A DNA stretch of 64,000 nucleotides from Marinobacter gelidimuriae (GTDB lineage Bacteria; Pseudomonadota; Gammaproteobacteria; Pseudomonadales; Oleiphilaceae). Every line of letters starts with the position of its first letter. Position 1 is the stretch's first letter. Of this stretch, positions 1 to 30,120 are shown one piece after another. Where the stretch lies: contig NZ_KB889886.1 of NCBI RefSeq assembly GCF_000372805.1, forward strand, positions 1 to 64,000, in the 5' to 3' direction. The notes under the pieces were generated by a model, which was not told the origin of the DNA, did no database searches, and saw only the letters and a program-made list of their open reading frames with translations. Made by a program: the position numbers and the translations under genes.

Positions 1-2
1 CC

Positions 3-743
3 GACAAAGACACCCCTCTTCAAATTGAGCATATCGACCCAAAAGCCAACGGTGGCTCGAACCGGATCAGCAACCTGACATTGGCGTGCCGGCCATGCAA
101 TCAGGAGAAAGGCAGGCAGCCACTTGCTGATTTCTTTGCATCGTTCAAGCGGCTGAAAAACCACCAGGCCAGGCTGGATCGCATTCTAAAACAGTGCAAA
201 AAGCCCTTAAGAGACGCTTCAGCGGTCAACTCCACCCGGTGGGCACTGCATCAGGCACTGAAGCAGACAGGCCTGCCGGTTGAAGTAAGCACTGGCGGCC
301 GCACGAAATTCAATCGGCATCGACTGGGCATTCCTAAGACTCACGCGCTGGACGCTGCTTGCGTCGGAGAAGTCGAGATCGTAGAAGGTTGGGACGTTCC
401 AACCTTGGCGATCAAAGCCACCGGGCGCGGCGGCTATAAGCGCACACGCTTAACAAAGCACGGCTTCCCCCGAGGCTATCTGATGCGCCAAAAGCAAGTA
501 CAGGGGTTTCAGACCGGCGACATGGTGCGCGCCGTAGTGCCGACAGGCACAAAAACCGGAACCTGGTTGGGCCGGGTCGCCGTTCGCAAGACCGGCAGTT
601 TCAATATTCAGACAAACAGCGGTGTCATCCAGGGAATCTCCCATCGCCACTGTGTTTTAACCCAGCGAGCGGATGGCTACGGCTATCACATCCAACCTAA
701 CCAACCAAAGGAGGAGGGAGACAGGAAAAACGAGTCGCGCTGA
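3..743 (+). CDS. iscB: IscB RNA-guided HNH/RuvC nuclease, C-terminal part (5' end outside window)
   Basis: The frame is open from base 3, so the gene begins left of the window; 246 residues are visible. They start inside an HNH domain: EHIDP, a glycine-rich turn, SNLTLAC, then a CxxC pair and CNQEKG. After a basic linker comes the RuvC-III segment, NATRW-like (here VNSTRWAL), TKFNRHRLG and [10 protein letters not shown], which carries the last His and Asp of the RuvC site. This order and spacing is that of IscB, the IS200/IS605-associated ancestor of Cas9, which is guided by an omega RNA encoded just upstream of the gene. That RNA would lie outside the window. The C-terminal tail is basic ([14 protein letters not shown]) and should be the RNA/target-binding region. 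No TnpA is visible. A hairpin like the IS605 ends follows the stop. The gene ends 53 bp before the ctpA start. Confidence 0.88.
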
Positions 744-756
744 CGCACGACGCGCC

Positions 757-790
757 ATCCCTCCCCGACCTGAAGGACGGGGTATCCCGC
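757..790 (+). repeat. IS200/IS605-like terminal hairpin behind iscB
   Basis: CCCCG at 763-767 pairs with CGGGG at 778-782 around the 10-base loop acctgaagga. The loop and stem match, apart from one loop base, the hairpin at 28965-28984 downstream of the tnpB remnant. Short imperfect hairpins like this form the subterminal ends recognised by Y1 transposases. It probably marks the right end of the iscB element, placing the element edge within the leader of ctpA. Confidence 0.6.
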
Positions 791-795
791 GCAAA

Positions 796-2205
796 ATGAT
801 GAAACTTGCCCAACGCACTCTTCATGCTTTACCGATGCAGGCCCTCGTTATGGCCTTCTGTTTTGCCGCTTCCGGTTGGGCTTTTGCGCAGCAGACGCCG
901 ACCAGTACCATAGCCGATCCCCACGCGGGCATTGATATGCCGGCCGAACGCGAGCAGCTACCGCTGGACGACCTGCGTAAATTTACCGCCGTGTTCAGTC
1001 GCATCAAAGACGCTTACGTGGAGGAAGTCACTGACAGCCAGCTGCTTGAAAGCGCCATAAAAGGCATGCTGTCAGAGCTGGATCCGCATTCCGCCTACTT
1101 GGCTCCAAAAGATTATGAAGACCTGGAAGAAAGCACCAGCGGTGCCTTCGGTGGCTTGGGCATCGAAGTGAGCATGGAAAACGGCTTTATTAAGGTCATT
1201 ACTCCCATAGACGACACGCCCGCTCAAAAGGCAGGCGTGCAAGCCGCCGACGTGATCATAAAACTGGGTGAGCAACCGGTAAAAGGCATGTCTCTGCAAG
1301 ACGCGGTAGAGCTGATGCGCGGCGAACCCGGCAGCATTCTGCAACTGACGATTATCCGCGACGGCGAAACAGGGCCGCTGGTCATTCCGGTGGAGCGCGC
1401 CATCATCAAGGTCACCAGCGTGAAATCCCGTATGCTGGATGACGGTTACGGCTATGTACGCATCACCCAGTTCCAGGCCGAAACAGGCAGCCAGTTCCGC
1501 AACGCTCTGAAGGCCCTGAAAAAAGACGCCGGTGGTGCGCTAAAAGGTGTCATTCTGGATGTACGCAACAACCCGGGCGGCGTGCTGCAGGCCGCAGTAG
1601 ACACCGTTGACGCCGTGCTAGACGAAGGCCTGGTGGTCTATACCGAAGGCCGCATACAGAGCTCACGCCTGCGCTTCAGCGCCACAGAAGGCGACATACT
1701 GGCCGATACGCCCATGGTGGTTCTGATTAACGGCGGTTCCGCGTCTGCATCAGAAATTGTCGCGGGCGCCTTGCAGGACCATCGCCGCGCCGTGGTGATG
1801 GGCACCCAGTCATTCGGAAAAGGCAGCGTACAAACCGTGATTCCGCTGGATGAAACCCACGCCATAAAAATGACCACAGCCCGCTACTACACCCCGGACG
1901 GCCGTTCCATTCAGGCCACCGGCATAAAACCGGATATCGAAGTCAAACCGGCAGAGCTGAAAGAACTGGACAGCCAGCCGATGTTTACTGAAGCTGATTT
2001 AAGCGGTCACCTGGAAGGCAAGAACGAAGCCGAAAACCGTAAAAACGAAGCTCAGAATGAAAGCGCTAAGGATGTAAGCGATAACACCAAGGAATCCGCT
2101 GAAGCGGTTCTGGATCGTGACTACCAGTTGCGCTCAGCACTGAACCTGCTGAAGGGGCTGAACATCATCAGCCGCACCGGCACATCCAGCAGTGCTCAGG
2201 AATAA
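796..2205 (+). CDS. ctpA: S41 family C-terminal processing peptidase, periplasmic
   Basis: Serine protease of the CtpA/Prc family acting in the periplasm on C-terminal tails, probably on envelope or cell-wall proteins. The start is taken at the ATG ATG pair at 796/799, because it opens directly into a signal peptide (basic MMKLAQR, a hydrophobic stretch, then WAFAQQ). An upstream in-frame start at 673 would add a non-hydrophobic leader that overlaps the iscB tail. A PDZ domain covers about residues 120-190 (GGLGIEVS to LTIIRDG). The catalytic Ser lies in GGSASASEI (residues 314-320) and the Lys in SFGKGSV (K342). The C-terminal tail is charged and low in complexity (KNEAENRKNEAQNE), of unknown role. 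The ribosome site is weak (GGACGGGG inside the upstream hairpin), so translation may be affected by the inserted element. Confidence 0.93.
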   Translation: MMKLAQRTLHALPMQALVMAFCFAASGWAFAQQTPTSTIADPHAGIDMPAEREQLPLDDLRKFTAVFSRIKDAYVEEVTDSQLLESAIKGMLSELDPHSAYLAPKDYEDLEESTSGAFGGLGIEVSMENGFIKVITPIDDTPAQKAGVQAADVIIKLGEQPVKGMSLQDAVELMRGEPGSILQLTIIRDGETGPLVIPVERAIIKVTSVKSRMLDDGYGYVRITQFQAETGSQFRNALKALKKDAGGALKGVILDVRNNPGGVLQAAVDTVDAVLDEGLVVYTEGRIQSSRLRFSATEGDILADTPMVVLINGGSASASEIVAGALQDHRRAVVMGTQSFGKGSVQTVIPLDETHAIKMTTARYYTPDGRSIQATGIKPDIEVKPAELKELDSQPMFTEADLSGHLEGKNEAENRKNEAQNESAKDVSDNTKESAEAVLDRDYQLRSALNLLKGLNIISRTGTSSSAQE

Positions 2206-28958: not shown

Positions 28959-28995
28959 CATCCTCCCCGCCCTGAAGGACGGGGATTCCTGCTGC
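28955..28995 (-). repeat. IS200/IS605 right-end hairpin behind tnpB
   Basis: On the plus strand, CCCCG (28965-28969) and CGGGG (28980-28984) flank the loop ccctgaagga. The neighbouring ttgacatcctc and attcctgc are typical of this element end. It lies immediately downstream of the tnpB stop, where the 3' part of a TnpB omega RNA normally ends and its guide begins. Confidence 0.7.
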
Positions 28996-28997
28996 GC

Positions 28998-29815
28998 TCA
29001 GGCATGGCATTGAGCCATCCCTGAGTCGCTTCGGTGGGTTCCTGTTGCTGACGGCATTACCGCACCGTTCACTTCACAGGCTAACCGGGCATGACCTGCC
29101 CTTAGAATATTGATTGCGGCGTTGAGGTCTGCATTTTCAGCATACCCACATTCAACACAGTCGAATTGCGATTGAGTCTTGCGATTCTCTGCGGAAATAT
29201 GACCGCAGGCCGGACACGTCCGGCTGGTGTTACGAGGGTTGACGGCAAACACTTCACCGCCCAGCCACGCCTGCTTGTATTCCAACTGGCGGCGGAACTC
29301 GCCCCAGCCCTGATCGAGAATCGACTTATTAAGGCCGGATTTGGCTTTTACGCTTCGTCCTGGTGCCTCAAGTGTGCCGCTTGCTGACTTGCTCATATTC
29401 GTGACTTTCAGATCTTCGATTACGACCATCGCGTGGTTTTTGCTGATGATGTTCGAGGTCTTGTGGAGAAAGTCATTGCGGGTATGAGCAACCCGTTGAT
29501 GCAACTTGGTGATACGGGCCTTCGCCTTTTCCAATTGCGGCTGAATTTGACCTTGCGGCTCATGCGTCGCTGATACTTTGCCATCTTCGCAGCGCGGGTA
29601 CGCAGCGCATTGACCGGCTCGAACATCGTGCCGTCAGAGAGCGTCGCGAATAGCGTGATACCCGCATCGAGGCCGACTATCGACGTTGATGGATGTATTG
29701 GCTGCCCAACTTCGCGCCCGGTCTGAATGCTGGCGTACCACTTGCCAGCCACACAGGAAACGGTGATGTTCTTTGCCAGTCCGATGATGCCACGGCTTTT
29801 GGTATTCCCTTCGGA
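28998..29815 (-). pseudogene. tnpB: TnpB nuclease remnant, 5'-truncated and frameshifted
   Basis: The conserved parts are recognisable in two frames. One reads KNITVSCVAGKWYASIQT, then IVGLDAGITL (RuvC-I Asp), RAAKMAKYQRRMSRKVKFS. The second reads KAKARITKLHQRVAHTR, VVIEDLKVTNM (RuvC-II Glu), TCPACG...DCVECGY (zinc finger) and NADLNAAINIL (RuvC-III Asp). The frames join if one A is restored in the A run at about 29528-29532. The N-terminal OB/wedge region is missing. All three RuvC acidic residues survive, so the loss looks recent. No tnpA is present. Confidence 0.85.
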
Positions 29816-29909
29816 TCACAAGACGGAAACGGCAGGGGCGCAAATCGCTCGGCTAGGTCGGTGCCAATAGGGTCACGAAGCTTGGACGACACGGAGCAGG
29901 CAAAATAAG

Positions 29910-30120
29910 GCGGGATCGACTGAATATCGCGATCAAGCTCTTCAAGAGTTTCCTGAATGAATAACTGATGCTGCCTTGAAACGTCTGGCTGCTGAATCAG
30001 CTCAGGCTCATGACAGTAAAGAGGGAGCACTTTTCCCTTGTTGCGGAAGGCTCGCATGCTTTCAAAAAAAGGCTCTGAGTCCTGAAGCCTCAGGTTGCGT
30101 TTAAGCCAGAATATCTGCAC
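29910..30120 (-). pseudogene. Deoxyribodipyrimidine photolyase, N-terminal fragment
   Basis: MQIFWLKRNLRLQDSEPFFE, VLPLYCHEPELI and a following helix (QHQLFIQETLEELDRDI) are the N-terminal Rossmann part of a class I photolyase. After about 70 residues the sequence becomes unrelated and runs into the tnpB element. The FAD-binding domain is absent. Confidence 0.7.

What the first reader, a model, noticed from the sequence alone, without database searches (positions are those of the whole stretch)
3..795. IscB beside ctpA: an OMEGA-type nuclease at the window edge
The visible part has the HNH and RuvC-III motifs of IscB and its 3' hairpin lies only 13 bp from the ctpA start. The element has landed in the leader of a core protease gene. 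Its omega RNA and guide would be just left of the window. No TnpA is seen, so it may be a stand-alone or domesticated copy.
Basis: partly seen in the sequence, partly recalled or inferred. Interest (0 to 1): 0.7.

Follow-up and report, generated by a model that had tools for sequence, protein, structure and literature searches.

The report
RNA-guided transposon at ctpA start codon
A small mobile DNA element that carries its own RNA-guided DNA cutter has landed directly in front of the start codon of a bacterial protease gene, and most of its relatives examined here also sit in front of what look like start codons, which may be a habit and can be tested.

Summary
Window 3-743 is the 3' part of iscB; the window starts where a contig broke inside the repeat. 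The left half ends contig C71: gpmI, envC, a HEARO (omega) RNA, then iscB with RRXRR, RuvC-I and bridge helix. It is not stand-alone or domesticated: it is one of about ten copies in a Marinobacter genome, and the ctpA site is empty in the three close relatives compared. A TnpA/TnpB element in the genome has similar end hairpins and may mobilise it in trans. The 20 nt left of the element match the empty ctpA leader of two sister species exactly, followed by GTGA. Beyond the question: these elements insert directly 5' of NTGA (nearly always ATGA), and that is often a start codon (galU, smpB, galE, ppsR, tcdA): 18 of 21 distinct Marinobacter sites and 49 of 68 others open a frame of at least 100 codons there, against about 22% of control ATGA sites. 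In 14 of 68, iscB ends on the target's own TGA. No mention of this was found in the open-licence papers searched; key papers were not held.

The parts
3..743 (+). 3' part of iscB (HNH, RuvC-III, C-terminal part), stop TGA 741-743; the 5' part is on contig C71 (L009), outside the window
   Evidence: ORF; Pfam/NCBIfam; rejoined 447-aa protein NF040563 454.9 bits (cut-off 175) and RRXRR PF14239 3.1e-70; join
1..94 (+). overlap with the end of contig C71 (assembly break inside the repeat)
   Evidence: 100% identity to the last 94 bases of C71; also exact inside the C47 copy, so the join rests on the order envC-ctpA seen in G048, G066 and G073
752..792 (+). right-end subterminal hairpin (outer GCGC 752-755/789-792, inner CCCCG 763-767/CGGGG 778-782)
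   Evidence: fold -18.1 kcal/mol, z -1.76; similar hairpin at the right ends of the other copies
796..798 (+). last three bases of the element (ATG), in frame with the conserved ctpA ATG
   Evidence: right ends read; boundary defined by empty sites of other copies
799..802 (+). ATGA = ctpA start codon + next base; NTGA motif at the element's right end (TAM position)
   Evidence: NTGA TAM of IsrB in PMC9581776 (passages)
799..2205 (+). ctpA, C-terminal processing protease, the displaced host gene
   Evidence: Pfam Peptidase_S41, CtpB_N-like, PDZ
28960..29752 (-). remnant of an IS605-type TnpB element with the end hairpin CCCCGCCCTGAAGGACGGGG (related mobile element, not part of the ctpA copy)
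   Evidence: intact relative with TnpA on C89

Best explanation
A non-autonomous IS200/IS605-type element of the HEARO kind (left end GTCAAC + omega RNA + iscB + right-end hairpin) has inserted between the ribosome-binding site and the start codon of ctpA. Inferred working: (1) a TnpA supplied in trans moves the element as single strand, choosing TCAT-like sites, i.e. NTGA on the iscB strand; (2) transcription entering from the envC side reads the ctpA leader, whose last ~16-20 nt become the guide, then the omega RNA and iscB; (3) the IscB RNP cuts the empty leader (guide match followed by NTGA) after excision or in incoming DNA, so repair from an occupied copy keeps or spreads the element; (4) ctpA stays in frame directly behind the element and is presumably translated through re-initiation behind iscB or from the element's terminal ATG. 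Shown: anatomy, boundaries, copy number, empty sites, guide match. Inferred: every activity, transcription and translation.
For: Joined element 1688 bp, IscB 447 aa with RuvC-I (KIDPGSK), arginine-rich bridge helix, RuvC-II (SQELVRFD), HNH (IEHIDPKA), RuvC-III (THALDAAC) (motif names recalled); guided_IscB 454.9 bits, RRXRR and HNH, solved IscB chains among the best sequence relatives. HEARO 110.6 bits, gathering 83. At five own-genome sites (C113, C47, smpB, C62-C66, C89-C36) the empty allele of a relative has left flank and ATGA adjacent, no base gained or lost. The 20 nt left of the ctpA copy match the empty leaders of G048 and G066 exactly and G073 with one mismatch, each followed by GTGA; 37 of 124 genus genomes hold the empty 28-mer with up to 3 mismatches, 3 exact, the own genome none. 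HEARO in 4 of 124 genus genomes with 2 to 11 hits each. An IS605-type TnpA/TnpB element on C89 has the 20-base hairpin CCCCGCCCTGAAGGACGGGG found exactly in 4 of 26 Marinobacter HEARO left ends.
Against: No expression, transposition or cleavage data. The ctpA copy lacks GTGA (4 nt) relative to all three close empty sites. Its left-end hairpin is weakened: GGGG reads GAAG, -19.8 against -26.8 kcal/mol for the C80 left end, so it may no longer move well. Two codons contain N on C71. The 94-bp join is not unique by sequence. The likeness of HEARO and C89 right ends was judged by eye; the exact left hairpin is shared by only 4 of 26 left ends. Nearest upstream ORF is co-oriented in only 29 of 59 loci outside Marinobacter (crude calls), so an upstream operon is no general rule.
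Confidence: 0.8

Rival explanations
1. Domesticated IscB: the nuclease has been recruited to regulate ctpA from its leader.
For: It sits in frame directly before the ctpA start, with catalytic motifs kept.
Against: About ten copies, several of them 87-89% identical over the 3' part, elsewhere in the genome; site empty in the three closest relatives compared; the same arrangement occurs before unrelated genes. Only one genome per species was available.
Confidence: 0.04
2. Dead copy: its RNA and ends have decayed, so it no longer moves or cuts.
For: Left-end hairpin mutated, GTGA missing at the site, two N in the left part.
Against: Full-length ORF without stop, catalytic motifs kept, HEARO above the Rfam gathering score; copy G073_255 shows the same variant in its first 26 bases.
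Confidence: 0.15
3. The start-codon position is only survivorship: insertions at NTGA are random, and those inside genes were lost.
For: 354 of 444 ATGA sites in the window are inside genes, where insertion would be harmful.
Against: Against non-genic ATGA sites only (30 start-like, 60 intergenic), 18 of 21 and 49 of 68 are in excess (Fisher 1.4e-5 and 1.2e-6). That comparison mixes criteria: the observed count is 'ORF of at least 100 codons at the junction', the background is 'at or near a called start', from one 63-kb stretch with crude gene calls. Like for like (ORF of at least 100 codons) the controls are 94 of 440 window sites and 481 of 2124 same-loci sites, Fisher 1.9e-9 and 3.1e-17, but those controls include genic sites. 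Insertion between ribosome-binding site and ATG should itself be harmful unless compensated (inference).
Confidence: 0.4

Closest known systems
HEARO RNA + IscB elements (Rfam RF02033; NCBIfam NF040563)
   Same: omega RNA 5' of the ORF, guide outside the left end, RRXRR-HNH-RuvC protein, NTGA next to the right end
   Different: nothing in the ctpA copy beyond the 4-nt loss at the site and the weakened left hairpin; the start-codon habit described here belongs to the group, not to this copy alone
IsrB (DtIsrB)
   Same: NTGA/NTG target-adjacent motif and omega RNA (PMC9581776, passages)
   Different: IsrB nicks and lacks HNH (the latter partly recalled); this protein has HNH
IS605-type element with TnpA (Y1) and TnpB on contig C89 (L231)
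   Same: one end with CCCCGCCCTGAAGGACGGGG, the other GCGCTATTCATCCCCGGCCTGAAGGCCGAGGTTTTCCGCGC, like HEARO left and right ends
   Different: carries TnpA and TnpB; its flank is not ATGA; TnpB guides lie at the other end (recalled)
TldR, regulators derived from TnpB
   Same: RNA-guided protein acting on a host gene (seen only in a search listing)
   Different: TldR are regulators without nuclease activity (recalled); this copy keeps catalytic motifs and transposon ends

Membership tests
IscB / HEARO | RRXRR (PLMP, RuvC-I, bridge helix) at the N-terminus | tested here: met
   PF14239 3.1e-70, residues 3-178 of the rejoined protein
IscB / HEARO | HNH nuclease and full-length match to the IscB equivalog model | tested here: met
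   PF14279/PF01844; NF040563 454.9 bits, positions 1-314 of 314, cut-off 175
IscB / HEARO | HEARO/omega RNA directly upstream of the ORF | tested here: met
   RF02033 at L009:5783-6022, 110.6 bits, gathering 83
IscB / HEARO | guide matches the uninterrupted target beside a TAM | tested here: met
   20 of 20 nt in G048 and G066 followed by GTGA; computed, not assayed
IscB / HEARO | RNA-guided double-strand cleavage | not testable with these tools
   no assay
IS200/IS605 superfamily | subterminal hairpins at both ends, no target-site duplication, precise junctions | tested here: met
   zero gain or loss at 5 of 8 own sites compared; hairpins at both ends; the ctpA copy itself lacks 4 nt of its site, C1 275 nt, C80-C64 about 24 nt
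IS200/IS605 superfamily | Y1 transposase TnpA in the element | tested here: not met
   no Y1_Tnp hit on C71 or C60; 13 hits elsewhere in the genome, 12 above cut-off; hence non-autonomous at most
Domesticated RNA-guided regulator | single copy kept at one site across species, ends lost | tested here: not met
   multi-copy; ctpA site empty in relatives; ends present

The most novel reading that the evidence does not exclude
HEARO-type IscB elements are start-codon specialists. Their target motif NTGA is the start codon of a gene plus one base, their guide is that gene's 5' leader with its ribosome-binding site, so the RNP takes its guide from a host transcript and homes to a sequence class under strong constraint. 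The host gene is re-attached to translation behind iscB; in some clades iscB has no stop of its own and ends on the TGA of the host's NTGA, giving stop/start overlap. Start codons would thus be a safe harbour for an RNA-guided transposon.
Probability: 0.6. Interest if true: 0.75.

Novelty: new member of a known kind. Interest (0 to 1): 0.52.

Why it matters
IscB is regarded as a relative of the ancestor of Cas9, and how its elements persist without their own transposase is open. If they sit on start codons because the guide must come from a host transcript and the host gene can be rescued by translational coupling, then target motif, 5' position of the guide and genomic niche are explained together. 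The multi-copy Marinobacter genomes with empty sister sites give a natural test system.

Tried and rejected
Four papers looked up by DOI are not held: Weinberg 2009, Kapitonov 2015, a 2023 Nature paper on transposon-encoded guided nucleases, Altae-Tran 2021 (names recalled). 'HEARO inserts 5' of ATGA or GTGA' is recalled from Weinberg 2009, which may already make the start-codon point.

Paper searches on this point, all over open-licence papers only: IscB+HEARO+start codon, 0 papers; HEARO/IscB/ATGA two of three, 27 papers, 25 listed; IscB+IS200+start codon+insertion, 3 listed; IscB+TAM+TnpA+guide+transposon, 16 listed; IS200/insertion/start codon/transposase/TnpB/upstream five of six, 77 papers, 15 listed; IscB+ribosome binding site, 2, unrelated; IscB/start codon/omega RNA two of three, 41 papers, 15 listed; spelled-out HEARO name, 4 papers. 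None was on this point by title and abstract start; most were not opened. Passages only were read of PMC9755519 and PMC9581776.

A stricter start test (ORF of 100 codons and no in-frame start further upstream in the joined empty site) gave 18 of 60 against 86 of 2124 control sites: enriched, but 42 of 60 fail it; I think GC-rich leaders that stay open are the reason, untested. The upstream-operon idea is not supported by crude calls, 29 of 59 co-oriented, although 13 of 14 annotated plasmid loci have a co-oriented upstream CDS (by eye). The idea that the element's terminal ATG is a designed start: the other types end mostly in CTG, CG or GG, so it is probably a by-product of a common ...TG tail. 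L226 (-1482) is a frame artefact and was left out of the overlap count.

Rows dropped: 7 of the 80 loci are Marinobacter (ELB17, M. bryozoorum), already counted as G066/G011; 5 of the remaining 73 gave no right junction (L199, L214, L217, L227, L228); 7 junctions were set by hand (L194, L206, L212, L218, L222, L224, L225); 8 loci lacked a recognised left end. The scan kept the best 80 of 373 confirmed loci. Of 56 plasmid records with IscB I fetched 14.

Full report
What is there. Window 1 is the first base of contig C60 of a 136-contig, 3.63-Mb genome. The open frame 3-743 is the C-terminal half of IscB. iscB is repeated, which is the likely reason for the contig break: the first 1500 bases hit 11 places in the genome.

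The missing left half. Near the end of contig C71 lie gpmI and envC (named by my reading of the translations), then a 75-base leader, then the element's left end at L009:5783, the HEARO RNA and the 5' part of iscB; the last 94 bases equal window 1-94. The same 94 bases also occur exactly inside the C47 copy, so the overlap alone does not prove the join; the continuous order envC leader-ctpA in G048, G066 and G073 does so indirectly. Rejoined, the element is 1688 bp and iscB 447 codons from its ATG, without a stop. NCBIfam guided_IscB scores 454.9 bits over the whole model; RRXRR covers residues 3-178 and HNH 197-244; solved IscB chains are among the best sequence relatives. Rfam HEARO scores 110.6 bits at the left end.

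Copy number. The genome has 11 HEARO hits and 11 IscB hits, several cut by contig ends; 10 left ends and 9 right ends were read. HEARO was found in 4 of 124 genus genomes: G000 11 hits, G066 9, G073 7, G011 2 (stricter filters that can lose weak matches).

Boundaries and target motif. 25 of 26 Marinobacter left ends begin GTCAAC, one GTTAAC. Right ends run hairpin, then CGCGC and a short tail, mostly AAAATG or AAAATCG, then ATGA; variants are TTAATG, TAAATG, AACATG, and C64 where the tail is shorter. Against empty sites in G048, G066 and G073, five own sites (C113, C47, smpB, C62-C66 = galU, C89-C36) have left flank and ATGA directly adjacent in the empty allele: no base gained or lost. The pairings C62-C66, C89-C36 and C80-C64 rest on these comparisons. 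Three of the eight own sites compared deviate: ctpA (4 nt GTGA missing), C1 (275 nt missing; in the empty allele the left flank is followed by ATGA, and the deletion ends at another ATGA), C80-C64 (about 24 nt missing and the motif altered). For ctpA two histories fit: insertion at GTGA with later loss of GTGA on the right, or insertion at the start ATGA with loss of GTGA on the left. The first keeps guide and motif adjacent in the empty allele; I prefer it, without proof. It also puts the element's final ATG in frame with ctpA.

The guide. The 20 nt left of the ctpA copy, GCGGAATAAATACAGGATAA, are identical in the empty leaders of G048 and G066, one mismatch in G073, each followed by GTGA. 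The empty 28-mer GAATAAATACAGGATAAGTGAATGAAAC with up to 3 mismatches is in 37 of 124 genus genomes, 3 exact; none in the own genome, none for the reversed control pattern. So the leader with its AGGA ribosome-binding site is a conserved target, and no empty copy of it was found in the occupied genome.

Who moves it. No Y1_Tnp hit lies on C71 or C60; the genome has 13 hits, 12 over the cut-off. On C89 an IS605-type element carries TnpA (138 aa, Y1_Tnp 2.4e-42) and TnpB (404 aa). One end has CCCCGCCCTGAAGGACGGGG, found exactly in 4 of 26 HEARO left ends (C80, G066_C61, G073_376, G073_304) and in near versions in others; the other end reads GCGCTATTCATCCCCGGCCTGAAGGCCGAGGTTTTCCGCGC, close to the HEARO right end by eye. 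Mobilisation in trans is an inference. The ctpA copy's left hairpin is weakened.

Start codons. In Marinobacter 22 of 25 right junctions (18 of 21 distinct sites, counted by hand) open a frame of at least 100 codons exactly at the ATG, against 94 of 440 ATGA sites in the window (Fisher 1.9e-9). The exceptions are C47, C36 and G011b. Of the 18 proteins scanned, 17 match a Pfam family; G011a does not. Curated models start within a few residues of the junction methionine for GalU (residue 2 to model 1), SmpB (3 to 3), PpsR (2 to 3), TcdA (3 to 6), acetoacetate-CoA ligase (6 to 3) and a GalE-type epimerase (3 to 1). For others the N-terminus is not settled that way: RecJ-like 124 to 102, ketopantoate reductase 112 to 68, Lon-like 43 to 2. 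In the GTDB-wide scan, after removing 7 Marinobacter loci, 68 of 73 gave a right junction: ATGA 65, GTGA 1, TTGA 1, ATGG 1; 49 of 68 open a frame of at least 100 codons there, against 481 of 2124 other ATGA sites in the same loci (Fisher 3.1e-17). Ribosome-binding-site-like tetramers lie just left of the element in 16 of 26 Marinobacter left flanks (window control 53 of 442) and 24 of 60 other ones (control 373 of 2482). With crude gene calls, 13 of 444 window ATGA sites are called starts and 17 more lie in frame within 60 codons of one; 60 are intergenic, 354 genic; the excess holds against non-genic sites too (Fisher 1.4e-5 and 1.2e-6), with criteria that are not quite the same on the two sides. 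In 14 annotated plasmids the next annotated CDS begins directly at the element's end in 7 by eye (L240, L242, L244, L246, L249, L250, L251; L244 and L251 look like the same site; L246 is annotated from an ATG 3 nt before the ATGA) and not in the other 7.

Coupling. In 14 of 68 loci iscB has no stop before the junction and ends on the target's own TGA: overlap of 4 nt (NTGA) in 10, of 1 nt (TGATG) in 4. Cupriavidus (L240) and Polaromonas JS666 (L242) plasmids show the same 1-nt overlap in their annotation, and the smpB copies in G000 and G073 read through to the junction. In 46 of 68 the stop lies 61-100 nt before the host ATG; for ctpA 55 nt. Re-initiation is my inference for how genes such as galU, or L178 (AlaRS by my reading of its N-terminus), tolerate the loss of their ribosome-binding site.

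Persistence. Insertions at the acetoacetate-CoA ligase gene and smpB are shared by G000 and G073, those at galE and a ketopantoate-reductase gene by G066 and G073, so copies at start codons can outlive speciation. The ctpA site is empty in G048, G066 and G073, and G011's two copies lie elsewhere; one genome per species was available.

What is known. IscB/HEARO as RNA-guided nucleases, their RNA and sparse TnpA association are in print (PMC9755519, passages); NTGA as an IsrB motif too (PMC9581776, passages). Insertion 5' of ATGA or GTGA is recalled from the 2009 HEARO description, which is not held. I found no mention of start codons in the searches listed under Tried and rejected.

Verdict. 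An ordinary and apparently complete HEARO/IscB element, correctly spotted, with the domestication reading rejected. The start-codon habit and the use of the target's TGA as the iscB stop are the parts worth a specialist's time.

Noticed in passing
window 28960-29752: TnpB remnant (C-terminal ORF 28998-29534 in one frame, another piece 29420-29752 in a second frame) with the end hairpin CCCCGCCCTGAAGGACGGGG, next to a photolyase-like ORF 29677-30120.
   Followed up: partly
L014 2435-3848 (G000 C1): HEARO/IscB copy whose right side has lost 275 nt of target; both the old and the new right neighbour begin with ATGA, as if the right end had moved to another target motif.
   Followed up: partly
L015 2344-4025 (G000 C60:119843 on): Second copy on the same contig directly before smpB, with a tmRNA gene downstream; its iscB reads to the TGA of the smpB ATGA. 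Same insertion in G073 (L107).
   Followed up: partly
L208, L210, L212, L218, L223: Five IscB loci (Nitrospirae, Leptospirillum and a gammaproteobacterial MAG) in which iscB ends on the target's NTGA, one of them with TTGA (L218).
   Followed up: partly
L113 (G073 C1:2925462-2925545): HEARO remnant in G073 beside the sequence that flanks the G000 C64 right end: perhaps an old shared insertion in decay.
   Followed up: no
L243 (M. nauticus VT8 plasmid pMAQU02): IscB split into two annotated ORFs on a plasmid typed as conjugative; a possible route between Marinobacter species.
   Followed up: no
L098 276-3941 (G011 C80): Two HEARO/IscB elements in tandem about 285 bp apart.
   Followed up: no
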